Positions 25,898 to 39,479 of a stretch of 40,894 nt of DNA are shown piece after piece. The stretch's first letter is position 1; every line of letters starts with the position of its first letter. Location: contig JAJTCK010000009.1 of the NCBI GenBank assembly GCA_021323175.1, positions 1 to 40,894 on the forward strand. The letters are read 5' to 3'. The translations under genes were made by a program, and so were the position numbers. The notes under the pieces are model-generated. The model was not told where the DNA came from and did no database searches. It saw nothing but the letters and a program-made list of their open reading frames with translations. Source of the DNA: Solirubrobacterales bacterium (GTDB taxonomy: Bacteria > Actinomycetota > Thermoleophilia > Solirubrobacterales > 70-9).

Positions 25898-26692
25898 TCA
25901 GCCCCCGAGCCACTCCCTGATCGGCGCCTTCACCGAGAGGGCCGAAAAGCTGCCGCCCTGAAGCTCCTGGGCAGCCTCGGCCATCGCCTCCACGGCGATC
26001 CAGGTCAGACCGCTCCCGACGCTGATGCGCTGCGCTCCGGCATCCACCACCGCGTCCTGGGAGAGCCCCGGGTGAGCGAGCACGTTGACCGGCCGGGAGA
26101 CCGCATCGCAAACCTGCCTCACCTCGCCGGCGTCCCGCAGGGCTGGCGCATACAGCACGTCCGCTCCAGCCTCCTCGAAGGCGCGGAGCCTGGCGATGGT
26201 GTCGTCGATGTCGGGATTACCCCGCAGATGATTCTCGGCGCGGGCCGTCAGCGTGAAGGCGAGGTCCAGGCCGCGCGCCGCCTCGACTGCCGCACGAACC
26301 CTCCCCGCGGCATGCTCGAGCGGGTACAGCTCCCGTCTCTCGGGATCCCAGTCCTCGATCGAGCCTCCGACCGCGCCCGCCGCCGCGGCGCCCTGGATGG
26401 CGGCCGCCGCCTTCTCCGGCGCCGACCCGTAGCCGTTCTCGAGGTCCACGGAGACCGGCAGGTCCGTCGCCTCCACCAGCAGGGCGGTGTGCTCCAGGAC
26501 CTCCTCCAGGCTGACGTTCCCGTCCAGGCGCCCCAGTGTGAACGCGAATCCGGCGCTCGTCGTGGCAACGGCGGGAAAGCCCAGCGCCGCCATCACCTTC
26601 GCCGTGCCGCCGTCCCAGGGATTTGGGATGACGAATGGCTCGCCGGCGTGCAGTTCCCTGAAGCGCTCGCCCTTCTCGGCCTGCGTGCTCAT
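25898..26692 (-). CDS. Isocitrate lyase/PEP mutase superfamily protein
   Basis: This 264-residue TIM-barrel enzyme of the carboxyphosphonoenolpyruvate/PEP mutase branch has FVIPNPWDGGTAKVMAALGF, TTSAGFAFTLG, SVDLENGYG (Mg-binding acidic residues), GGSIEDWDP, LTARAENHLRG and NVLAHPGLS. The usual gating-loop motif KKCGH of true isocitrate lyases is absent, so it is more likely an oxaloacetate- or C-P/C-C-lyase type, of unknown substrate. The ATG at 26692 is preceded by AGAGGA. It lies 40 nt downstream of the SecD-head lipoprotein gene on the same strand and could share its transcript. Confidence 0.88.
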   Translation of the reverse strand: MSTQAEKGERFRELHAGEPFVIPNPWDGGTAKVMAALGFPAVATTSAGFAFTLGRLDGNVSLEEVLEHTALLVEATDLPVSVDLENGYGSAPEKAAAAIQGAAAAGAVGGSIEDWDPERRELYPLEHAAGRVRAAVEAARGLDLAFTLTARAENHLRGNPDIDDTIARLRAFEEAGADVLYAPALRDAGEVRQVCDAVSRPVNVLAHPGLSQDAVVDAGAQRISVGSGLTWIAVEAMAEAAQELQGGSFSALSVKAPIREWLGG

Positions 26693-26732: not shown

Positions 26733-27791
26733 TCAGCCGGCCTGGGCCAGCCCGACCGGTGGAGGCCCGACCTCGAGCAGGGAGGCGAGCTCCTCGGCCT
26801 CGTCCCGGGAGAAGTCGCCGGAGATGGTCACTCCCTGCGAAGCTTCGATTCCGTCGGGGTTCTCCACGAAGTTGATGAGGGGGCGCGAGACGACCTCTCC
26901 GTCGAGAACGATGGCGAGGTGGCCGGAGATCTTGGTGGCCTCGGCGGGGCCCACTTTCTTCGGTGCTTCGGCTGCGGAGCGAACGGCGATGCGGCGCGTC
27001 AGCTGCTCGAACACCTCCTGCCCGTGCTCGGTCAGACCGAACGAGATCGCGGGCTCGCCCGTGACCGGATCGGTGATGGCCTGCGGGTGGACGATGTCGT
27101 TGCCGGTGAGCGAAGCGCGATCCCGCAGCGCGAAATAGGACTCGGGACCCACCGCGGCGAGGATCACGCCCTCCTGGATGGCGAGCACCTCCACGGGCGG
27201 GTCGATCCCGTCGGCGAGGCGGTCGTCGAGCAGGCGCTCCGCACCCAGCGAGGGACCGTCCAGCAGCTCCTTGGTGTCGAGGTCGTACAGGAAGTAGGTG
27301 GGGCCCGGAACGGTGCAGTGGCCCTCGGAGCAGTCGGTGGGCTGGGCAGCGGCGAACCGGACGGCGTCGTACTCGCGCTTGAACGGCGTCTCGGTCGGCC
27401 TGGGGCTGCGCACCGCCGGGTCCAGAATCACATTCGCCTCCCAGTCATAGAAGCCGATCCTGGCCGGTTCCCCGATCAGCTCGGCGGCCCGCTCGGCGTC
27501 CTCTCCGGCCAGGAAGACCTCGACCTGGTTGTCCTCGCCGCGGACGACCACGTCATCGACGCCCAACGCCTTGGCGCGGTCGCAGAGGTTCTCGCGCGTG
27601 GCCTCGGCCTCCGAACCGGAGACCGCGCCCAGGGCGGGCGCGGGGACCATGCGGAAAGAGACCTCCACCGCGTCCTCGGGTGGAGAGCCGTCACAACCGG
27701 CGACCTCCTGCTGTCCGCCGCCGCAGGCGGCCATGGGGAGCGCGCATGCGACCGCGGCCAGAGCCGCGACACTGAGACGATGCCCCTGCAT
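26733..27791 (-). CDS. Lipoprotein with a SecD P1-head-like domain
   Basis: This 352-residue lipoprotein has a signal peptide ending in MAAC (Cys23) followed by GGGQQEV. The rest resembles the periplasmic first domain of SecD: VSFRMVPAP, a ferredoxin-like unit with ALGVDDVVVRGEDNQVEVFL and AELIGEPARIGFYDWE, and then the head subdomain AISFGLTEHGQEVFEQLTRR, ISGHLAIVLDGEVVSRPLIN and GVTISGDFSRDEAEELASLL. None of the SecD membrane helices is present. The start is ATG 27791, because TAGGAT on the minus strand (27799-27804) ends 7 nt before it; the ATG three codons earlier overlaps that promoter. The role is unknown, perhaps a helper of secretion or of the adjacent RND protein. Confidence 0.82.
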   Translation of the reverse strand: MQGHRLSVAALAAVACALPMAACGGGQQEVAGCDGSPPEDAVEVSFRMVPAPALGAVSGSEAEATRENLCDRAKALGVDDVVVRGEDNQVEVFLAGEDAERAAELIGEPARIGFYDWEANVILDPAVRSPRPTETPFKREYDAVRFAAAQPTDCSEGHCTVPGPTYFLYDLDTKELLDGPSLGAERLLDDRLADGIDPPVEVLAIQEGVILAAVGPESYFALRDRASLTGNDIVHPQAITDPVTGEPAISFGLTEHGQEVFEQLTRRIAVRSAAEAPKKVGPAEATKISGHLAIVLDGEVVSRPLINFVENPDGIEASQGVTISGDFSRDEAEELASLLEVGPPPVGLAQAG

Positions 27792-27798
27792 GGCGCGC

Positions 27799-27804
27799 AT
27801 CCTA
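27799..27804 (-). promoter_or_regulatory. -10 element, minus strand
   Basis: TAGGAT is followed by 7 nt and ATG at 27791. It is the same hexamer and spacing as at 21542-21547, and gives the lipoprotein its own leaderless transcript. Confidence 0.5.
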
Positions 27805-27821: not shown

Positions 27822-28493
27822 CTAGGCCAGCATGGCGCTCGAGGCGACCCACAGTGCCTCTTCGAGAGCGACGTCAGGCACCCCCCGCACCCCCACCGCG
27901 ACGATCGCCGTGCGCTCGGTCTTACGGGTGACGCCGCGTCCCTCGGCCTTGGCGCCGAACAGGATCTCCAGGGGTCTGCGCTCGTCGGCGATTACGATCG
28001 TGCCCGCCTCGAGGGGAGTGATGCGGCCCTCGATCTGCTCCTTCTCATCCGCCTGGCGCAGACCCAGGCGTCCGTCAACCCTTTCCGCATCGAAGGCGGT
28101 AAGCGCCACGCCGACCTCGGCGACGGCCAGCGTCAGCGCATCGTCCAGGCGGTTGCGGGGCGCGAAACGCCCGTCTCTCATGCGGTTGAGCGAGACCTCC
28201 TCGGCCGGTGGCGGCGTCCGGTCCGGGTCAAGGCCGATGTGCCGGAAGAAGACCCGATACGCCCAGGGAATCGCCTGCTGGCGCAGGTTGATCGCCTGCG
28301 CGCCGGCGAAGCGGTCACTCAATTCGCGCAGCTGCTCCCTGACCGGCTCGGGGCTCCGGCCACGTCCGCCCTGAACCTCGACGAAGGCCAGCGACAGCCC
28401 TGGAAACTCCTGGGCCAGCACCGGCTCGACCCAGCCGGCCTCGGGGGCCGCGTCCTGCGGCTCGCGGGCAGCCAGGTCACCGGGCTCCGCCAT
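27822..28493 (-). CDS. B3/B4 (tRNA-binding-like) domain protein
   Basis: This 223-residue protein is related to the B3/B4 domain of phenylalanyl-tRNA synthetase beta chain, which binds or edits mischarged tRNA. Pieces typical of the stand-alone family are LSLAFVEVQGGRGRSPEPVREQLREL near the N-terminus, PWAYRVFFRHIGLDPDRTPP, LNRMRDGRFAPRNRLDDALT and LAVAEVGVALTAFDAERVDG, then EIEGRITPLEAGTIVIADE-like strands. The family is known from tRNA or peptide editing contexts, but its free-standing form has no firm function. ATG 28493 and the TGA of the previous gene overlap as TGATG. Confidence 0.85.
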   Translation of the reverse strand: MAEPGDLAAREPQDAAPEAGWVEPVLAQEFPGLSLAFVEVQGGRGRSPEPVREQLRELSDRFAGAQAINLRQQAIPWAYRVFFRHIGLDPDRTPPPAEEVSLNRMRDGRFAPRNRLDDALTLAVAEVGVALTAFDAERVDGRLGLRQADEKEQIEGRITPLEAGTIVIADERRPLEILFGAKAEGRGVTRKTERTAIVAVGVRGVPDVALEEALWVASSAMLA

Positions 28494-29209
28494 CAGCGCA
28501 CCGTAGCGGCCCGCCGGCGGGACTCCGCGACGAGCCTGTCCACCTGCGCGCCGATCTCCGCTTCGCTCAGTTCGCCGATCGCGGTGTCTCGCAAGATCCC
28601 GCCGGGATACGCGTAGAGCAATGTCGGGCAGCCGCCGACCCGGTACAGGTTCGACAGGGCGCCGTCGGAGTCGAGCCCGATCGGGTGCGTCCACCCCCGC
28701 TCCTGGGCCAGGCGGGCCACCTCGTCGCGACCGTCGCGGACGTTGATCGCCAGGAAGTTGACCTTGTCGCCGCGGCGGCGATACACGGCTTCGAACGCGT
28801 CCTGCTGGGCCTCGCACTCGCCGCCGCGCGTGAACCAGAACGAGAGCACGAGTGGCCGGTCGAAGAGGTCGCACACCCGTATGGCTCCCTCGACCTCGAC
28901 CTCGCACGCGGGGATCCGCACCTCGTCCTCGGGGCACGGAATCCGCGAGACCTCGCAATCGTCCTGCGCGATATTCGCATCGCCCCCGGCCCCGCTCTTG
29001 AGCGACGGGACGGCGAACTGCGCCAGCGGCAGGTCGCCCTCCTCGTCGGCGCCGATCACCCCGCTGTCGTCGGTCTGCACCGTGTTGATGGCGGCGACGA
29101 TGATGATCGCGACGAAGACCAGGCCGACGATCGCCGAGTAGATCGCCGTCGGGCGCCTGTCCCGGCCGCGGTGCCCGCGCTCACGCGGGGACTCGCCGTT
29201 CTGGCTCAT
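28493..29209 (-). CDS. Membrane-anchored thioredoxin-fold protein with a degenerate CxxC
   Basis: This 238-residue protein has a charged N-terminus, one transmembrane helix (AIYSAIVGLVFVAIIIVAAI) and an extracellular thioredoxin/TlpA-like domain. The active-site helix reads FWFTRGGEC: by alignment with FWATWCxPC the first catalytic Cys is Gly129 while the second, Cys132, remains. The cis-Pro loop GGCPTLLYAYPGG is intact and adds a Cys beside the proline. Four more cysteines sit in the N-terminal insert (DDCEVSRIPC, PACEVEV, RVCDLF), suggesting structural disulfides. It could be a peroxiredoxin-like or redox-silent binding domain. ATGA overlap with the upstream MMPL gene and TGATG with the next make it a tight operon. 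Confidence 0.85.
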   Translation of the reverse strand: MSQNGESPRERGHRGRDRRPTAIYSAIVGLVFVAIIIVAAINTVQTDDSGVIGADEEGDLPLAQFAVPSLKSGAGGDANIAQDDCEVSRIPCPEDEVRIPACEVEVEGAIRVCDLFDRPLVLSFWFTRGGECEAQQDAFEAVYRRRGDKVNFLAINVRDGRDEVARLAQERGWTHPIGLDSDGALSNLYRVGGCPTLLYAYPGGILRDTAIGELSEAEIGAQVDRLVAESRRRAATVR

Positions 29210-31869
29210 TCGGCTCGCCCCTGCGCCGGCCTGGCGGCCACCGGGTTGCGCGCGGTGCGGCGCCTGCGCGAGCCGAGCCGCTGCTCTGCCCAGACGAGCG
29301 CGGCCGGGAGCACGAGCATCACACCGACCAGGGCCACGGCGAGGTCGGCCACGGTGACGAGGCCGAAGTCGCGGAGCATGCGGATGTCGGTGGCCGCCAG
29401 TGCGGCAAAGCCGGCGAGGGCGGTCACGCCCGACGCAAGCACCGCCGTCCCGGTGCTCGAGTAGGTGACCCTCAGGGCCTCTCCCACGGTCAGCCCCCTG
29501 CCACGCTCATGTTCGTAGCGCGCCGACAGGAGCACGCTGAACTCGGTGGCGATCGCGATCACCAGGGCACCCAGGGTCGCAGACATCGGGTTGAGCGGGA
29601 CGTCGATCGCGGCGACCACGAGCGCCGACCACCCGGTCGCCAGAACGATCGGGATCAGCGGAACCAGCGCCCGCCGCAGCGAGCGGTACACGGCGAGCAG
29701 GGCCAGCGCGACAGCGGCCAGCCCGGCCAGCGGAAGCCAGTAGCGGCTGTCAGCCAGGTCCTCGTTGGCCTGGGCGGCGATCACCGGCAGGCCGGCCAGC
29801 TCGACCTCCGTCCCCGCGGGCGGCCCACCCTCGGCGTCGATCTGGGAGCGGATCCGGTCGATCAGCTCCTGCTGGTCGTCCAGGGGCTGGACCCTGATCC
29901 CGAAGGCGATATTCGCCGTGTCCCCGATCCCCCCGGCGGGGTCCCTGGTGACCACCGCCTGCGAGAAGTAGGGCGGGATCGTCGCGACCAGCGCGCGGAC
30001 CTGCTGCTCGCTCGTGATCCGTGTGCCGCCGGTGAACAGGTCGGTCAGGGAGATGGCGGGGCACAGGCGGGCGTCCTCGCAACTGGGATTCGGGCCGGCG
30101 TACCCCGCGTCCTCGAGCACGCGGGCCTGGAAATCGCCGATCCAGTTGGTGACCGCGGGGTCCGCGAGATCATCGGAGCGCACGACCGCGTTCACCTCGC
30201 CGGAGACGCCGGTCTCCTCCTGCAGGTCGTTCACGTCCTCGAGGGCCTGGAGGCTCGAGGGCGCCAGGTCGCGGATGTCGGAGACCACCTCGGTCTTCGT
30301 CCCCGCCACCCAGCCGCACACGGCCAGGACCACCGCGGCCCCCAGCACGCGGCCCGGGCGAGCGATGGCGACTGCCAGCGTCGCCTTGCCGGCCGCTCGC
30401 AAACGAGGTCGGGCGCCGGCCCACCTCCTCGCGACCTCGGCCGTCTTCGGTCCCCAATCGCGTGCCGAGCGTGGGGCCGCCGGGCCGCGCCAGGAAGCGA
30501 GGGCCAGCGCCGCGAACCCGGCCGTCGCCGCGACCGCGAACGCGAGCGCGATGCCCGCGATCAGGAGGACCCCGAACGACCGCACCATCGGGATCGGAGA
30601 GAGCACCAGCGCAGCAAACCCGGCCGCGGTCGCGATGCACGCCGCACCGATCACGGGTCCGCCGCGGCGCGCCGCGGCGACCGCGGCGCGGGCGGGCGGG
30701 GCGCCCTCGGCCTGCGCCTCGGCGAACCTGGCCTGGAACTGGATCGCGTAGTCCACCGCCAGCCCGATCAGGACCGGCAGCACTGCGACGGAGGCCATCG
30801 TGAGCGAACCCCCGAGCAGTGCCAGCAGCCCGAAGGTCAACGCTGACGCCGCCAGGGCCACGCCCAGGGGGAGCAGCCGCAGTGGTGGGCTCAGGATGGC
30901 GAGCAGCGTCAGCGCCATCAGGGCCACCGCGACGGCCAGGAGCACGAGCAGCTCGGTCTGGAGTGCGGACGCGAGGCCCTCGACCACGGCAGGCACGCCG
31001 CTGACGACGTAGGTCCCGCCCCCGCGAAGCGCGAAGCGCTCGTCACCGATGGCCCGCCTGAACAGCTCCACCGCGTCTGCGCGCTCCTGGTCGGTCAGAT
31101 CGGGACGGAGCCGGGCCGAGACCAGCGCGGAGTCCGCGCTGGGGAAGATGTAGGCGAAGCGCTCCTTGGGGGTACCAGCCTGCGCCTCGGGATCGAACAC
31201 AACCCTGCTGATGAACTGCGTATCGTCCAGGCGCGGGGGACGCGTGATGTTGAACTGGAGCGCGAGTCGGATCAGGTCGCTCTGGAATGAGCCGAGCACG
31301 GCCTCGCTTGCCTGGGCTGCCGCTTGCCGCGCCTCGTCATCCGAAGCGCCGCTCGCCAGCGCCATGGCCGAGGCACGCCGGCCGGCTCGACGCGCCGCCG
31401 CCCGGGTCGCTCCGATCTGTCCCTGGAGCAGCTGCTGGATCTGCGCGACCGACTGGTACAGGAAGGTCGCCGGCCCGTAGACCACGCGGGCGGGCGCCAG
31501 CTCCGCGATCTCCTCGCAGACCTCGGGAAGGGGCGCTCCGCGGCGGCGCGGCAGGCTCTCGCCCAGCTCCGTCCCGCCCGCCAGGCATGTCTCGAGCTCG
31601 AAGAGCGCCTGCAGGTTCGCGGTCAGCGTGAGCTGCCTCAGGTCCTGACGAATCAGGATCACCGCCGCCTCGTCGCCGAAGCTCTCCCTGAACCGCTCCG
31701 TCGCCCGGAACTCGGGCGAGTCCTCGTCCACCAGCGTCTCCGTGCCCGCGTTGGTCGGCAGCGTGAAGGCCCCCACCGCGCCCGCGATCGCGAGCAGCGC
31801 GACGACGAGCAGCGTCATGCGCGGCCACCGCACGGCAACCCCCGCAACCCGCTCGAAGAAAGAGCTCAT
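29206..31869 (-). CDS. MMPL/RND-family transporter
   Basis: This 887-residue membrane protein has the RND layout: a helix near residues 18-36, a large extracytoplasmic domain, five helices (VLLAVAVALMALTLLAI, LTMASVAVLPVLIGLAVDYA, and so on), a second large domain and a final helix bundle (ALVIAIATEFSVLLSARYEHERG, VASGVTALAGFAALAATDI, VTVADLAVALVGVMLVLPAA). GLAVDYAIQFQARFAEA and EFSVLLSARYE are the intramembrane acidic stretches that carry protons in RND pumps. MMPL-type proteins move lipids or lipid-like molecules. It heads an operon with the thioredoxin-fold and B3/B4 proteins. A 7-bp hairpin lies between it and the upstream Mce-type ATPase gene. Confidence 0.9.
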   Translation of the reverse strand: MSSFFERVAGVAVRWPRMTLLVVALLAIAGAVGAFTLPTNAGTETLVDEDSPEFRATERFRESFGDEAAVILIRQDLRQLTLTANLQALFELETCLAGGTELGESLPRRRGAPLPEVCEEIAELAPARVVYGPATFLYQSVAQIQQLLQGQIGATRAAARRAGRRASAMALASGASDDEARQAAAQASEAVLGSFQSDLIRLALQFNITRPPRLDDTQFISRVVFDPEAQAGTPKERFAYIFPSADSALVSARLRPDLTDQERADAVELFRRAIGDERFALRGGGTYVVSGVPAVVEGLASALQTELLVLLAVAVALMALTLLAILSPPLRLLPLGVALAASALTFGLLALLGGSLTMASVAVLPVLIGLAVDYAIQFQARFAEAQAEGAPPARAAVAAARRGGPVIGAACIATAAGFAALVLSPIPMVRSFGVLLIAGIALAFAVAATAGFAALALASWRGPAAPRSARDWGPKTAEVARRWAGARPRLRAAGKATLAVAIARPGRVLGAAVVLAVCGWVAGTKTEVVSDIRDLAPSSLQALEDVNDLQEETGVSGEVNAVVRSDDLADPAVTNWIGDFQARVLEDAGYAGPNPSCEDARLCPAISLTDLFTGGTRITSEQQVRALVATIPPYFSQAVVTRDPAGGIGDTANIAFGIRVQPLDDQQELIDRIRSQIDAEGGPPAGTEVELAGLPVIAAQANEDLADSRYWLPLAGLAAVALALLAVYRSLRRALVPLIPIVLATGWSALVVAAIDVPLNPMSATLGALVIAIATEFSVLLSARYEHERGRGLTVGEALRVTYSSTGTAVLASGVTALAGFAALAATDIRMLRDFGLVTVADLAVALVGVMLVLPAALVWAEQRLGSRRRRTARNPVAARPAQGRAE

Positions 31870-31952: not shown

Positions 31953-32954
31953 TCAGTCCATCGCGAGCGGCCCCTTGACGTCGGCGTTCAGGAACTGGTT
32001 GACGAACTCGTTCTTCGAGTTGAACAGCTCGTCCGAGGGACCGCTCTCGACGATCCGGCCCTTCCACAGCACGGCGATGAAGTCCGCAATCCGACGCGCG
32101 GTGCCAAGGTCGTGGCTGATCACCAGGTAGCAGCCGCCGTTCTCCTCGTGGACCTCGCGGATCAGTTCGCACAGGAGCGCGGTCCGCACCGGGTCCAGGC
32201 CGGAGTCGGGCTCGTCGAACATGACGATCGCCGGGTCGAGCACGAGCGCCCTCGCGAAGCCCGCGCGCTTGCGCATCCCGCCCGAAAGCTCGTTCGGCAT
32301 CTTGTACATCGCCTCGGAGAGGCCGACCTCGCGCAGCCGGCGGTTGACGATCTCCTCGATCTCGTCCTCGCCCTTGTCCGTGTGCTGGCGGAGGGGGAAC
32401 GCCGTGTTGTCATAGACGTTCATCGACCCGAACAGCGCGCCGTCCTGGAACAGGAGGCCGAACTTCTTGCGCGTCTCGAACAGCTCGTCGTCGTTCATGC
32501 CTGGGATCGACTCGCCGTGCACGAGCACGTCGCCGGCGTCGGGATAGAGCAGCCCGACGATGTGCTTGATCAGCACCGACTTGCCGGTGCCCGAAGGCCC
32601 GAGGACCATCGAGATCATGTCGTTCGGCAGACCGAGGTTGCACCCGTTCAGGATCCGGGTGCGGCCGAACTGCTTGACGAGGTCGATGATCTCGATCGCG
32701 TCCTCGCCCCCGTGGTCCCGCTTCTCGCCCGTGTGCCACTTGTAGGGATGCGGGTCATCGGCTTCGACACCGGGGATCGTGTAGTCGCGGTCGCCGAAGT
32801 CCTCGTTGCCGGTCATCCCCTGCGCCGCCAGCGGGTCGGTCCGCTCCTCGGCGCCCTGCTCCCTGGCGTCCGAGCTCGCCTTGGCCCCCGGGCTCCGCCG
32901 GGCCGCGGACCCCGTGCCGCCGCTGCTCGTCGTGTCCTTCTCACTCTCTGCCAA
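31953..32954 (-). CDS. Mce/Mla-type ABC importer ATPase (MkL/MlaF-like)
   Basis: This 333-residue ATPase has an unusually long, charged N-terminal extension (about 85 residues, rich in Ser, Lys, Asp and Glu). The domain then begins AIEIIDLVKQFGRTRILNGC. Walker A is GPSGTGKS, the Q-loop is GLLFQDGALFGSMNVYDN, the signature is LSGGMRKRAGFARAL, Walker B is IVMFDEPDSGLD, and the H-loop is VISHDLGTARR. DSGLDPVR and GALFGSMNVYDN mark the MlaF/MkL class. AGGAGG lies 8 nt upstream of the TTG start. It energises lipid or sterol import with the two MlaE-type permeases upstream; no MCE-domain protein is encoded in this window. Confidence 0.92.
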   Translation of the reverse strand: MAESEKDTTSSGGTGSAARRSPGAKASSDAREQGAEERTDPLAAQGMTGNEDFGDRDYTIPGVEADDPHPYKWHTGEKRDHGGEDAIEIIDLVKQFGRTRILNGCNLGLPNDMISMVLGPSGTGKSVLIKHIVGLLYPDAGDVLVHGESIPGMNDDELFETRKKFGLLFQDGALFGSMNVYDNTAFPLRQHTDKGEDEIEEIVNRRLREVGLSEAMYKMPNELSGGMRKRAGFARALVLDPAIVMFDEPDSGLDPVRTALLCELIREVHEENGGCYLVISHDLGTARRIADFIAVLWKGRIVESGPSDELFNSKNEFVNQFLNADVKGPLAMD

Positions 32955-32976
32955 GGCTCAATCCTCCTGGCGGCCG

Positions 32977-33777
32977 TCAGCCGCCGATAGGCGCTCGTGG
33001 GTTCGCTCCCCAGAAGACCAGGGTTCCCATCATCCCGATCAGGTGCACCAGCACGATGTTCAGGACCATGGACTTCGCGGTCGCGGTGCCGACTCCGACC
33101 GGCCCGCCCGAGGCGGTGTAGCCGTAGTAGCAGCCGACCAGCACGATGGCGGTCGCCATCGTCATGCCCTTGATGAGGCTGAATAACAGGTCGGGCGGGT
33201 TCTGGAACATCCAGAAGATCAGGAAGTAGCCGCCGGACGAGACGTCCCCGATCTGTTCGACCACTGCCAGCCAGCTGGCGAAGAATCCGATTCCCACGGC
33301 GGCCAGGTACATGAAGGGGAAGGCGATCCATGCGGCGAGCAGGCGGGTGGCGGCCAGGAAGGTGACGGGCGGCACGCCCATCACCTCGAGCGCGTCGATC
33401 TCATCGGAGATCCGCATGGCGCCCAGCTCGGCGACGATTCCGGTCCCCACCTTGGCGGCCAGCATGTAGCCGAAGGCATAGGGGATCACCTCCCGCAGGT
33501 CACACCAGGCGGCGAACACGCCGGCGTAGGCGGGCGCGCCGACCGAGCGGTTGAAGTAGGCGCCCTCGATGCCGCACTGCAGGCCGAGGATGAAGACCAG
33601 CCCCCAGATCACGATCGTGGAGCCCAGGATCAGGATGCCGGTCTGGCGCAGGGCCTCGCCGAAGAACTGGAAGACCCGGCCGCTGAAGACCAGGCCCATG
33701 ACCCGCGTGGAGAACCCGAAGATCTCGCCGATCGAGTTCAGCCAGGACTTGGGGACCGCCGTCCAGCCGCCGCCCAT
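32977..33777 (-). CDS. MlaE/YrbE-type permease (second copy)
   Basis: This 266-residue permease has about five helices, including ILILGSTIVIWGLVFILGLQ and FAAWCDLREVIPYAFGYMLA. The conserved MlaE loop is VAELGAMRISDEIDALEVMG followed by VPPVTFLAATRLLAAWIAFP. The coupling helix residues EIDAL are intact. The ATG overlaps the stop of the first permease (TAATG), and the ATPase starts 22 nt later. The two permeases probably form a heterodimer, as YrbEA and YrbEB do in mycobacterial Mce systems. Confidence 0.92.
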   Translation of the reverse strand: MGGGWTAVPKSWLNSIGEIFGFSTRVMGLVFSGRVFQFFGEALRQTGILILGSTIVIWGLVFILGLQCGIEGAYFNRSVGAPAYAGVFAAWCDLREVIPYAFGYMLAAKVGTGIVAELGAMRISDEIDALEVMGVPPVTFLAATRLLAAWIAFPFMYLAAVGIGFFASWLAVVEQIGDVSSGGYFLIFWMFQNPPDLLFSLIKGMTMATAIVLVGCYYGYTASGGPVGVGTATAKSMVLNIVLVHLIGMMGTLVFWGANPRAPIGG

Positions 33778-34583
33778 TACTTGATCACCTGGAGCTCGGG
33801 ATGGGTCGCCAGCAGCGTCTGCGTGAAGACGTAGTTGAACGCGAACACGCCCATGAACGCGATCACGACCGCCTCGTTCACGGCTCTGCCCACGCCCTCG
33901 GCGCCTCCGGACGCAGTCATCCCCTTGTAGGAGCAGACGATCGCGATTATCGCCCCGAACAGGGTCGTTTTCAGGACCGACCCCCAGAGGTCCGTGACGG
34001 AGGCGTTGCTGAAGAGGGTCGAGAAGAACCCGCCGAGCGGCTCGTTGTAGAGCAGCTCCGCGCCGATGCCGCCGACGATGCCGAAGATCAGCGCGTAGAT
34101 GTCCATCAGGCCGGTGATCAGCATCAGCGCCAGGAACCTTGGGACGACGAGGTTCTTGATCGGATCGACTCCGAGCACCTGAAGGGCGTCCAGCTCCTCG
34201 CGGATCTTGCGCGCCCCGAGGTCCGCGGTGATCGCGGTGCCGGCGACTCCGGCGACGACGACCGCGGTGACGAACGGCGCGAACTCGCGAATGGAGGCGA
34301 GCACGAAGAATCCGCCGAGCCTGTCGAGGGCGCCGAACAGGGAAAGGAAGTTCGCGGCCTGCAGGCCCGGTGCCCCGAACCCGAACGCCAGCGTCGAGAT
34401 CATCATCGGGAACCAGCAGAGCTGGAGAGCGAACAGGAACTGGCGGATGAACTCACCGCCATACGGGTAGGGGGGACGGATCGCCGAGACGATCGTCTTC
34501 GCGGTCAAAATCATCATGTCCCCCACCTGCTCGAAGAGCGACTTCGCAGGCAGGAACGCTCTGTCGGCTACCGATCGGACCAA
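33777..34583 (-). CDS. MlaE/YrbE-type permease (first copy)
   Basis: This is a 268-residue permease with helices such as FALQLCWFPMMISTLAFGFG and FAPFVTAVVVAGVAGTAITA. The signature loop is DLGARKIREELDALQVLGVD followed by PIKNLVVPRFLALMLITGLM. The TTG at 34583 is fixed by AGGAGAG 6 nt upstream, and TAGTCT (minus strand, 34601-34606) offers a -10. A tandem 10-bp repeat lies just upstream of that. It is the first gene of the three-gene importer core. Confidence 0.92.
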   Translation of the reverse strand: MVRSVADRAFLPAKSLFEQVGDMMILTAKTIVSAIRPPYPYGGEFIRQFLFALQLCWFPMMISTLAFGFGAPGLQAANFLSLFGALDRLGGFFVLASIREFAPFVTAVVVAGVAGTAITADLGARKIREELDALQVLGVDPIKNLVVPRFLALMLITGLMDIYALIFGIVGGIGAELLYNEPLGGFFSTLFSNASVTDLWGSVLKTTLFGAIIAIVCSYKGMTASGGAEGVGRAVNEAVVIAFMGVFAFNYVFTQTLLATHPELQVIK

Positions 34584-35693: not shown

Positions 35694-36899
<1,206 letters not shown>

Positions 36900-36901
36900 G
36901 A

Positions 36902-36985
36902 GTGCTCCGCATCACGATCCTGTCCGGCCTGACCGGGCTGTTGGTACGGGGGAACGGCCGCGTCTACAGGGTGGACCCGTCGTGA
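36902..36985 (+). pseudogene. Possible 3' remnant of a sugar dehydrogenase copy
   Basis: The 28-codon stretch ends NGRVYRVDPS, closely resembling NGPIYRLDPA at the end of copy 3. About 25 of 33 nucleotides agree over that segment (36952-36984) by my hand alignment, more than copies 1 and 2 share there. It sits exactly between copies 1 and 2 and ends as GTGA with the copy 2 start. It looks like a leftover of a duplicated copy, or a short coupling peptide. Confidence 0.45.
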
Positions 36986-38223
36986 CCTCGAAGTTCCGCC
37001 ACCACGCGCGCACCCGCATCGCCGTCTCCGCACTGGCCGCGGCGCTCGCGTGTGCGTCCGGCGCCGCCGCGGGCGATCGGCACGCTCAGGCGGGGGCGGC
37101 CGTGGCCGCCCCCGAGGCCGCCGAGGCCGCGAAGACCGGCGGCGGCAGGGGAGGGATCGGGCTGAAGCGGGTCGGCCGCTTCCGCGCCCCGACCTACGTG
37201 GCGGGCGCCCCCGGGGAAAAGGGCGTCTTCGTCGTCGAGCAGGCCGGTCGGATCAGACTGCTCCGGCGAGGAAAGCGCAGGACGTTCCTGGACATCCGGG
37301 GCAAGGTGCTGATAGGCGGCGAGCAGGGGCTGCTCTCGGTGGCATTCGCCCCCGATTACCGGACCAGCGGCTTCCTCTATGTCTTCTACGTCACCAACGG
37401 CGGGGACCTGGCGATCGAGGAGTACCGCCGCGACTCGGCCAAGCGGGCCGCTCCGGGCAGCGCGCGGCGCGTGCTCACGATCGACCACCCGGGCGAGTCG
37501 AACCACAACGGCGGGCAGGTCGCGTTCGGCCCCGACGGCTTGCTCTACGCGGGAACGGGCGACGGTGGCGGCGCGGGCGACACCTCCGACAACGCCCAGG
37601 ACGTCGACAGCCTGCTCGGCAAACTCCTGCGGATCGACCCGCGACCGAGCAGTGGCCAGCCCTACCGGTCGCCCGGTTCCAATCCGTTCGCCGGCCGCGC
37701 GGGCAGGGACGAGGTCTACGCGGTGGGATTGCGCAATCCGTATCGGTTCTCGTTCGACGGCGCCTCGGGCAAGGGCACCCGGATCGCGATCGGGGACGTC
37801 GGCCAGAACCGCTTCGAGGAGATCGACTACGAGAAGCTTGGAGCCGCCAACGGGGCGAACTTCGGCTGGAACGATTTCGAGGGCTTCTCCACCTTCGACG
37901 GGGCCCATGCCCCGGCGCCGAGCAGGCATGACCGCCCGATCAAGGTGTACGGCCTTGGCGGAGGGGGCTGCGCGGTGATCGGCGGCTACGTCTCGGCAGC
38001 GCGGGAGCTGGCGAGCATCCGGGGCCGCTACGTCTACGGGGACTTCTGCCTCGGTCAGATCCGAAGCCTGGTGCCCAAGCTCGGCCGCGCCCGCAAGGAT
38101 CGCCGCCTGGGGGTGCGCGTTCCGATGCTCAGCTCGTTCGGCCGCGGCCCTGGCGGGAGCCTCTACGCGACGTCGCTGAACGGCCCCGTGTTCAAGCTCG
38201 TGGGCAAGCGCAGGAAGCGGTAG
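36982..38223 (+). CDS. PQQ-dependent sugar dehydrogenase family protein (copy 2)
   Basis: This 413-residue secreted paralogue of copies 1 and 3 has a Sec-type signal peptide (basic KFRHHARTR, then VSALAAALACASGAAAG). A low-complexity Ala/Glu linker follows, then the propeller: GRFRAPTYVAGAPGEKGVFV, GGEQGLLSVAFAPDY, NHNGGQVAFGPDGLLYAGTG, YAVGLRNPYRFSFD, IGDVGQNRFEEIDYEK, NFGWNDFEGF and CAVIGGYVSAARELAS. The conserved His of NHNGG is retained. GTG 36982, with AGGGTGG upstream, overlaps the TGA of the small remnant frame as GTGA. There is no lipobox Cys, so unlike copy 1 it is probably released or loosely attached. Confidence 0.9.
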   Translation: MTSKFRHHARTRIAVSALAAALACASGAAAGDRHAQAGAAVAAPEAAEAAKTGGGRGGIGLKRVGRFRAPTYVAGAPGEKGVFVVEQAGRIRLLRRGKRRTFLDIRGKVLIGGEQGLLSVAFAPDYRTSGFLYVFYVTNGGDLAIEEYRRDSAKRAAPGSARRVLTIDHPGESNHNGGQVAFGPDGLLYAGTGDGGGAGDTSDNAQDVDSLLGKLLRIDPRPSSGQPYRSPGSNPFAGRAGRDEVYAVGLRNPYRFSFDGASGKGTRIAIGDVGQNRFEEIDYEKLGAANGANFGWNDFEGFSTFDGAHAPAPSRHDRPIKVYGLGGGGCAVIGGYVSAARELASIRGRYVYGDFCLGQIRSLVPKLGRARKDRRLGVRVPMLSSFGRGPGGSLYATSLNGPVFKLVGKRRKR

Positions 38224-38240
38224 CTCTAAGCTCCCGCGCC

Positions 38241-39479
38241 GTCATCTCAAAGCGACGCGCAATCGAGACAGCAATCGCCGCGGCCCTCGCCGTGGCCGCC
38301 GCCGCGATCGGGATCTCCGAGCGCGACGAGAAGCCGCTCGGCCCAAAGTTCCTGACCCTGGAGCGCATCGGGCGTTTCGACCAGCCCGTCCACCTGGCCC
38401 AGCCGCCGGGCAGCGACCTGCTCTACGTGGTCGAAAGGCCCGGCCGCGTGCGGGTCATCCGCGACGGCCGGACGCTGAAGCTGCCCTTCCTCGACCTGCG
38501 GGGAAGCGTCGAGGACTCGGGGCACGGCGGCGAGCAGGGCATGCGCTCGATCGCGTTCGCCCCGGACTATCAGGAGAGTGGCCTGTCATACATCTCCTAC
38601 ACCGACCGGCGAGACACGATGCGGGTGCTCGAATACAGGCACCTGCGGGGAGATGAGGCGCGGGCGGACAAGGCCAGCGCCCGCCTGGTCCTGAGCATCC
38701 CCCAGCCGACTCCGCAGCACCACGGCGGCCTGCTGGCATTCGGCCCGGACCGCTACCTCTACCTCGGCGTCGGGGACGGCGGACCCTGGCGCGACCCCCG
38801 GGCCCAGGACAAGCGCCTGCTGCTGGGAAAGCTGCTGCGGATCGACCCGCTCACGCAGCGGGCAACATCCGACGGCGCGACCGAAGCAGGCGACCGAAAG
38901 GATGACGGCCCACGCGAGTACACCGTCCCGCGCGACAACCCCTTCGTAGGCAAGCCCGGCCGTGACGAGATCTACTCCTACGGGCTGCGCAACCCGTGGC
39001 GGTTCTCGTTCGACCCGGCGACGGGGCTGATCGCGATCGGGGACGTCGGCGACGCCATGTACGAGGAGGTCAACATCCTTCCGCTGCGCAAGGCCCGGGG
39101 CGCCAATTTCGGCTGGTCGGGCTGGGAGGGCAACTACGAGCTCACGCCGGGGGCGATCCCCCGGGACAGGACGGTGCGCCCGGCCCTCGCGTACCCGCAC
39201 GACCCCGAATGCGCCGTGACCGGCGGCTACGTCGTCCGCGATCCGCGTCTCTCACGCATCGCCGGCCGCGAGATCCTGGGCCGCTACATCTTCGGGGACT
39301 TCTGCACCGGCCGCCTGTTCGCGTTCCGCCTGACGCCCACGGGCCGCGGCGAGGAGCGCAGCTTCCGCTTCCGGGTCCCGGCCCTCGCCTCGTTCGGCGA
39401 GGACCGCTCGGGCCGCATCTATCTGATCTCCCAGAACGGCCCTATCTACCGGCTGGACCCGGCGCGCAAGCGGCGCTAG
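38241..39479 (+). CDS. PQQ-dependent sugar dehydrogenase family protein (copy 3)
   Basis: This is the third paralogue, 412 residues if it starts at 38241. The propeller markers are VVERPGRVRVIRDGRTLKL, GGEQGMRSIAFAPDYQES, QHHGGLLAFGPDRYLYLGVG (HH replaces HN), YSYGLRNPWRFSFD, IGDVGDAMYEEVNI and CAVTGGYVVRDPRLSRIAGR. Upstream of the first standard start (GTG 38292) the frame encodes ISKRRAIETAIAAALAVAAA, a perfect signal peptide or anchor, so translation must begin earlier. The only candidates are GTC 38241, 8 nt after TAAGCT (38227-38232), or ATC 38244. The stop lies in the palindrome GGCGCTAGCGCC. Confidence 0.85.
   Translation, partial: VISKRRAIETAIAAALAVAAAAIGISERDEKPLGPKFLTLERIGRFDQPVHLAQPPGSDLLYVVERPGRVRVIRDGRTLKLPFLDLRGSVEDSGHGGEQGMRSIAFAPDYQESGLSYISYTDRRDTMRVLEYRHLRGDEARADKASARLVLSIPQPTPQHHGGLLAFGPDRYLYLGVGDGGPWRDPRAQDKRLLLGKLLRIDPLTQRATSDGATEAGDRKDDGPREYTVPRDNPFVGKPGRDEIYSYGLRNPWRFSFDPATGLIAIGDVGDAMYEEVNILPLRKARGANFGWSGWEGNYELTPGAIPRDRTVRPALAYPHDPECAVTGGYVVRDPRLSRIAGREILGRYIFGDFCTGRLFAFRLTPTGRGEERSFRFRVPALASFGEDRSGRIYLISQNGPIYRLDPARKRR

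What the first reader, a model, noticed from the sequence alone, without database searches (positions are those of the whole stretch)
26733..27791. SecD periplasmic head domain as a free lipoprotein
The protein has a lipobox and a SecD P1/head-like domain but none of the SecD membrane helices, and it lies near an RND protein (SecDF is itself RND-related). It may be a helper of protein secretion or have been recruited for a new role.
Basis: partly seen in the sequence, partly recalled or inferred. Interest (0 to 1): 0.5.

Follow-up and report, generated by a model that had tools for sequence, protein, structure and literature searches.

The report
Free lipoprotein copy of SecDF's grip
This bacterium carries, besides its normal protein-export motor SecDF, a separate small surface-anchored protein made only of that motor's outer "hand", and related bacteria have copied out the same piece more than once, in several cases placing it beside a gene-control factor.

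Summary
Window 26733-27800 (-) encodes 355 aa: an N-terminal signal/lipobox-like segment, then the SecD P1 domain (weak base, strong head), ending where SecDF's second membrane helix would follow. The genome also has a normal SecDF (999 aa).

A tree places the lipoprotein inside its own family's SecDF P1 domains: a truncated duplicate, not an old separate family. Only the one congener held shares it (2 of 50 family genomes). It evolves about ten times faster than SecDF. The suggested MMPL link is weak: the MMPL-thioredoxin cluster is found across the family, and the lipoprotein and a PEP-mutase gene stand at its end only in this genus.

Wider search: P1 was copied out repeatedly in this class, as lipoproteins (at least 2 origins, AU p 0.0004) and as single-pass membrane proteins whose gene overlaps an upstream ECF sigma gene (8 of 8 testable loci). 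Free copies lack the GLDLxGG motif of SecD/SecDF (0 of 13 against 44 of 44).

Most likely it is a passive, membrane-tethered polypeptide-binding head without motor; function is inferred, and a decaying relic is the main rival. New variant of a known kind.

The parts
26733..27800 (-). free SecD-P1 lipoprotein gene, 355 aa (alternative start at 27791)
27720..27776 (-). hydrophobic signal segment, residues 9-27, lined up with SecDF TM1
27723..27725 (-). probable lipid-modified Cys26 (relaxed lipobox MAAC; Pro at -4)
   Evidence: the sister-species cysteine passes strict patterns
27444..27677 (-). P1 base, N-terminal part (residues 42-119), without the GLDLxGG motif
   Evidence: (weak, below cut-off)
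26763..27140 (-). P1 head (residues 221-346), PF22599
25898..26692 (-). PEP-mutase family gene, present at this place only where the lipoprotein gene is; in pieces in the sister species' contig
27822..28496 (-). B3/4-domain protein, next gene upstream (21-bp gap)
28493..29209 (-). TlpA/ResA-like thioredoxin-fold protein with GGEC, a single Cys, where CxxC is usual
29206..31869 (-). MMPL/RND transporter (HAE3-like, below that model's cut-off)
31953..34583 (-). MlaF-type ATPase and two MlaE permeases, upstream part of the conserved cluster

Best explanation
Shown by sequence: the gene is a duplicate of the front part of a secDF of its own family (first membrane helix plus P1), standing with a PEP-mutase gene at the end of an older Mla-MMPL-thioredoxin-B3/4 cluster in the two held species of this genus; it stops at the end of P1 and has lost the GLDLxGG motif at the P1-membrane junction. 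Inferred: TM1 became a lipoprotein-type signal segment, the product is tethered to the outer face of the cytoplasmic membrane, and it keeps P1's polypeptide-binding head but cannot couple to proton flow. It would therefore act as a passive catcher or adaptor for polypeptides outside the membrane (a holdase near the translocon or for a narrow client set) and not as a pulling motor.
For: P1 head E 6e-16; Foldseek's first 8 hits all SecDF. 42% identity to own SecDF P1, E 7e-64. Tree: the two g1 lipoproteins form a 100/99 pair inside family f1 SecDFs (100/97), in a 10-row set at 96/95 (bootstrap not fully settled). Of 76 P1 columns conserved in 30 SecDFs it keeps 47: 2 of 8 in the first 16 positions but 7 of 8 in 111-200 and 30 of 45 from 201 on, so the junction is lost and the head kept. 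GLDLxGG: 44 of 44 SecD/SecDF rows, 0 of 13 free copies. ORF, signal segment, coding GC pattern (0.75/0.48/0.88) and gene place are kept in the sister species at 41% identity, while the adjacent PEP-mutase gene there is in pieces. P1 head as SecD's substrate-binding site: passages of PMC7793623.
Against: No evidence that the lipoprotein itself binds polypeptide. Fast evolution: tip branches 0.80 and 1.27 against 0.11 and 0.095 for SecDF in the same two species; NG86 dN/dS 0.83 against 0.13-0.33 for SecDF, MMPL, thioredoxin and MlaF, with dS near saturation. The sister copy has lost part of the head's central loop and strand and keeps 24 of 45 conserved columns there. The model is low-confidence with loose superpositions. 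The window's lipobox is not canonical.
Confidence: 0.45

Rival explanations
1. A decaying or nearly neutral truncated duplicate: expressed perhaps, but without selected function.
For: About tenfold faster evolution than SecDF; NG86 dN/dS 0.83; only 2 of 50 family genomes have it; the neighbouring PEP-mutase gene is in pieces in the sister species.
Against: Both copies are open frames at only 41% identity, with GC3 0.88 and 0.94; the ML dN/dS estimate is 0.14 (0.02-0.04 for the four comparison genes); signal segment, FYDWE and most head residues are kept in both.
Confidence: 0.25
2. A partner of the MMPL-Mla envelope cluster (extracytoplasmic subunit of a lipid or drug exporter).
For: Same strand, 21 bp behind the B3/4 gene of the cluster; kept in both congeners.
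Against: The cluster stands without it in the other family loci examined: 0 of 19 informative; none of the cluster's genes is found at the two other lipoprotein loci (L040, L097).
Confidence: 0.12
3. A sensor of unfolded exported protein recruited for signalling, as the sigma-linked P1 proteins of the same class may be, with its signalling partner elsewhere in the genome.
For: 8 of 8 testable free P1 membrane proteins in related families have a gene start that overlaps an ECF-type sigma gene; the free copies lack the same GLDLxGG motif.
Against: None of those eight sigma factors has a match at E 1e-3 in the window or at the other three lipoprotein loci (control and looser limit, best 0.009); a lipoprotein has no cytoplasmic part.
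Confidence: 0.1

Closest known systems
SecDF P1 domain (PF22599 + PF21760; solved as 3aqo, 3aqp, 5yhf, 5xan, 5xap, 5xam)
   Same: whole P1 extent, head motifs, order of elements, best sequence and Foldseek matches
   Different: no further membrane helices, no second half, no GLDLxGG motif; lipoprotein-type N-terminus in place of TM1
Own genome's SecDF (C46, 999 aa)
   Same: 42% identity over residues 34-351; the tree puts the lipoprotein among the family's SecDFs
   Different: full motor; 11 hydrophobic segments by a simple scan
P1 membrane proteins of the same class, eight of nine shown next to an ECF sigma gene (L083-L087, L089, L095, L096, L102)
   Same: P1 without the SecDF motor, no GLDLxGG
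   Different: transmembrane anchor with a short cytoplasmic N-terminus; one common origin of all 13 free copies is rejected (AU p 0.004)
PpiD / SurA (chaperones at the translocon exit)
   Same: proposed working place; PpiD crosslinks to SecD's P1 head and SurA is predicted to meet it (passages)
   Different: compared by role only; fold relation not tested here

Membership tests
SecDF_P1_head domain family (PF22599) | profile score above the curated cut-off | tested here: met
   58.8 bits against 27
SecDF_P1_head domain family (PF22599) | P1 fold | tested here: inconclusive
   Foldseek's first 8 hits all SecDF (best E 6.3e-9), but on a model of pLDDT 54 with rmsd 13-15 A
SecD P1 N-terminal part (PF21760) | profile score above the curated cut-off | tested here: not met
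   16.3 bits against 27; the stretch does align with SecDF
SecD/SecDF translocase subunit | equivalog score (TIGR01129) | tested here: not met
   53.1 bits against 244.4
SecD/SecDF translocase subunit | multiple membrane helices (six in SecD, recalled) | tested here: not met
   one N-terminal hydrophobic segment only
SecD/SecDF translocase subunit | GLDLxGG motif after TM1 | tested here: not met
   44 of 44 SecD/SecDF rows against 0 of 13 free copies, this one included
Bacterial lipoprotein | signal segment with lipobox cysteine | tested here: inconclusive
   relaxed lipobox at C26 with Pro at -4; strict in the sister copy
Bacterial lipoprotein | lipid modification in vivo | not testable with these tools
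   needs labelling or mass spectrometry
Polypeptide-binding chaperone | binds unfolded polypeptide | not testable with these tools
   for SecD's P1 head from the literature only (passages)

The most novel reading that the evidence does not exclude
In this class of bacteria the substrate-binding hand of the export motor is a portable sensor of exported polypeptide: copied out of SecDF several times, uncoupled from the motor with loss of GLDLxGG, and re-anchored either as a lipoprotein or as the outer domain of a membrane protein paired with an ECF sigma factor, making a bacterial analogue of unfolded-protein sensing built from translocon parts.
Probability: 0.2. Interest if true: 0.75.

Novelty: new variant of a known kind. 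Interest (0 to 1): 0.45.

Why it matters
SecDF is normally one motor, and whether its P1 head can do anything alone is open. Natural free-standing P1 proteins, of more than one origin and lacking the same motif, give a ready set to test which parts bind polypeptide and which couple to the motor. The sigma-linked copies, if they are anti-sigma factors, would give a direct route from exported-protein load to transcription.

Tried and rejected
MMPL or RND partnership: rejected as the main reading, because the cluster stands without the lipoprotein in the other family loci examined (20 loci, out of 47 other family genomes with the thioredoxin-like gene). Replacement of SecDF: rejected, SecDF is intact in both species. 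Ancient separate family: not favoured by the tree; the g1 and G057 lipoproteins as one clade have AU p 0.00041 (L097 left out for its long branch, a choice made after seeing the tree), all 13 free copies as one clade 0.0041. A single origin of the seven f2 membrane-type copies is not rejected (p 0.06). The place of L095, L096 and L097 is unsure (long branches) and the bootstrap of the second tree had not settled.

Led nowhere: the plasmid search gave 5 records; one is annotated secD, and the two I opened (L100, L101) hold long SecDF-type frames. Genome contigs gave 5 loci, all SecDF. VIA-align rows below SecDF are common ferredoxin-like folds and RND transporters, not used. In one search the B3/4 pair was taken in a wrong frame and is discarded, and the G001 SecDF stretch ran one codon past its stop. 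In one search the first of two BLAST databases failed (empty output); it was redone with a positive control. The phylum search scored at most 4 candidates in most genomes, so it can miss copies. Literature: no paper in the held library with 'SecDF P1 head'; the listings of searches on ECF/anti-sigma/SecD, SecDF/P1/lipoprotein/paralog, SecDF/P1 head/preprotein, Solirubrobacter/SecDF and SecD-like/lipoprotein/Actinobacteria showed nothing on free P1 proteins (15 of 33 and 10 of 53 papers listed). This is only that library; annotated 'SecDF P1 head subdomain-containing protein' entries elsewhere are recalled, not seen.

Against my reading of the motif loss: by alignment L086 still keeps 5 of the 8 conserved positions in the first 16, and L083, L084 and L085 have lost much of the middle of P1 too (2, 3 and 4 of 8 kept), so motif loss is not the only change in the free copies.

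Rows dropped before counts: L091 (fragment) from trees and the motif count; L034, L035, L036, L073 and L090 from the second tree; L074, L082 and L090 from the 76-column count; L114 (10 bases fetched by mistake). Of 13 genomes with two or more P1 hits among 229, G058 is one gene split in two hits, G244 looks like one SecDF cut at contig ends, G066's second hit is a SecDF-type fragment at a contig edge and G136's is an undetermined 125-aa fragment. In the order set G171's second hit is SecDF-type, and those of G125 and G129 were left as fragments or not opened.

Full report
WHAT IS THERE. The minus-strand gene 26733-27800 encodes 355 aa. Pfam gives the SecDF P1 head at 6e-16 over residues 221-346 and the P1 N-terminal part weakly (0.0067, below cut-off) over 68-119. 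The best PDB sequence hits are SecDF. An AlphaFold2 model from six sequences is poor (pLDDT 54); Foldseek ranks eight SecDF chains first, best E 6.3e-9, but with loose superposition (rmsd 13-15 A). The only hydrophobic segment over threshold is at residues 9-27. The lipobox is probable but not canonical in this species (Pro at -4 of C26) and canonical in the sister species.

ORIGIN. The genome (2.3 Mb, 169 contigs, 94% complete) has two P1-head genes, this one and a normal SecDF (L038 5842-8841, 999 aa). The lipoprotein is 42% identical to that SecDF's P1 (E 7e-64). Lined up, its signal segment falls on SecDF TM1 and its stop falls where P1 ends. In a 52-row tree the lipoproteins of the two congeners pair at 100/99 and sit inside family f1's SecDFs (100/97 for the 20-row family set, 96/95 for a 10-row subset). 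It is thus a truncated duplicate made within the family; which SecDF inside the 10-row subset is nearest is not resolved.

DISTRIBUTION AND PLACE. Of 50 genomes of the family searched, 45 have any match to the protein and 2, the window's and the only congener held, have the free form; the five without a match are 54-82% complete. I compared 20 loci of other family members around the thioredoxin-like gene: MMPL and the thioredoxin-like gene are in 20 of 20, MlaF in 18 of 20 (the other two contigs start inside MMPL), B3/4 in 15 of 20, and the lipoprotein and PEP-mutase genes in 0 of 20; one contig ends before the place, so 0 of 19 are informative, 14 of them with the B3/4 gene. In the congener the order is the same as in the window, with the lipoprotein ORF open and the PEP-mutase gene in pieces in two frames with a part missing (a draft contig, so an assembly error is possible). 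The nearness to MMPL is best read as a late insertion beside an older cluster.

RATE. Tip branches are 0.80 and 1.27 for the two lipoproteins against 0.11 and 0.095 for the two SecDFs. NG86 dN/dS is 0.83 against 0.20 (SecDF), 0.23 (MMPL), 0.33 (thioredoxin) and 0.13 (MlaF), with dS near saturation; the ML values are 0.14 against 0.02-0.04. Constraint is weak but not clearly absent.

A WIDER PATTERN. Searches for the P1 head in the order (232 genomes), the class (229 genomes at least 90% complete) and one copy-specific search in the phylum (396 genomes, few candidates scored per genome) turned up other free P1 proteins. Lipoprotein-like: G057 (L040, 370 aa, strict lipobox LTAC) and G271 (L097, head only; its CAGC cysteine matched none of three patterns). 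Membrane proteins with one TM then P1: nine (L083, L084, L085, L086, L087, L089 and L102 of family f2, L095 and L096 of f9). Eight of the nine could be tested for the gene in front. All eight have an ECF-type sigma factor (Sigma70_r2 and r4 hits; for L095 the r2 hit is below cut-off), and in all eight the P1 gene's start overlaps the sigma gene's stop: by 4 bases in six, 1 in L089 and 11 in L096. The ninth, L086, lies at a contig end. These are not eight independent events: L083/L084 and L085/L102 are pairs from one genus each. Among the 229 class genomes at least ten have a free form: G000, G001, G057, G097, G201, G202, G271, G295 and G304, found among the 13 with two or more hits, and G093, found only; three more (G094, G124, G149) come from less complete genomes of the order. 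None of the eight sigma factors matches at E 1e-3 in the window or at the three other lipoprotein loci.

ORIGINS OF THE FREE FORMS. G057's lipoprotein sits inside family f3's SecDFs (100/99), apart from the window's; holding the two groups together is rejected (AU p 0.00041). All 13 free copies as one clade is rejected (p 0.0041). A single origin of the seven f2 membrane-type copies is not rejected (p 0.06), although two of them (G124, G149) lie beside their own genomes' SecDF in the tree (87/70 and 95/95). Long branches make single placements unsure.

A SHARED LOSS. The GLDLxGG motif just after TM1 (called D1, name recalled) is in 44 of 44 SecD/SecDF rows, some of them close relatives of each other, and in 0 of 13 free copies (33 and 9 rows, 11 and 4; L097 is head-only, so for it the loss is trivial). 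Of 76 columns conserved in 30 SecDFs the window protein keeps 2 of 8 in the first 16 positions but 37 of 53 in positions 111 to the end. Not every free copy is as clean: L086 keeps 5 of the first 8, and L083-L085 have lost much of the middle too.

HOW IT MOST LIKELY WORKS. In SecDF the P1 head is described as the substrate-binding site that moves with proton flow (passages of PMC7793623, and of PMC9987972). Without the membrane core and the junction motif, the free protein cannot pull. The likeliest remaining role is passive binding of polypeptides at the outer face of the membrane (inferred). A near-neutral relic is the main rival, given the rate.

NOVELTY. A free, probably lipid-anchored P1 is a new variant of a known domain. 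The repeated escape of P1 and its tie to ECF sigma genes is the more striking part; I found no paper on either in the held library, which is not the whole literature.

Noticed in passing
L083 6271-7766, L084 6323-7875, L085 5011-7139 (-), L087 4891-6890 (-), L089 3746-5625, L095 3555-5494 (-), L096 19-1567 (-), L102 4262-5997 (-): ECF-type sigma gene overlapping the start of a single-pass membrane protein whose outer part is a SecD P1 domain: putative anti-sigma factor or sensor; 8 of 8 testable loci.
   Followed up: partly
L040 8965-10077 (-); L097 2563-3138 (-): Two further free P1 lipoprotein-like genes in other families of the class, the second with the head only; none of the window cluster's other genes is found there.
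   Followed up: partly
window 28493-29209: Thioredoxin-fold protein with GGEC in place of CxxC (also in the sister species); relatives in 49 of 50 family genomes and next to MMPL in 20 of 20 loci. Whether the other relatives also lack CxxC was not checked.
   Followed up: no
L039 1570-2042: PEP-mutase gene of the sister species is in pieces (two frames, about 60 residues missing), unlike the window copy at 25898-26692.
   Followed up: no
window 35694-39479: Three neighbouring plus-strand ORFs all match the GSDH (glucose/sorbosone dehydrogenase) family.
   Followed up: no
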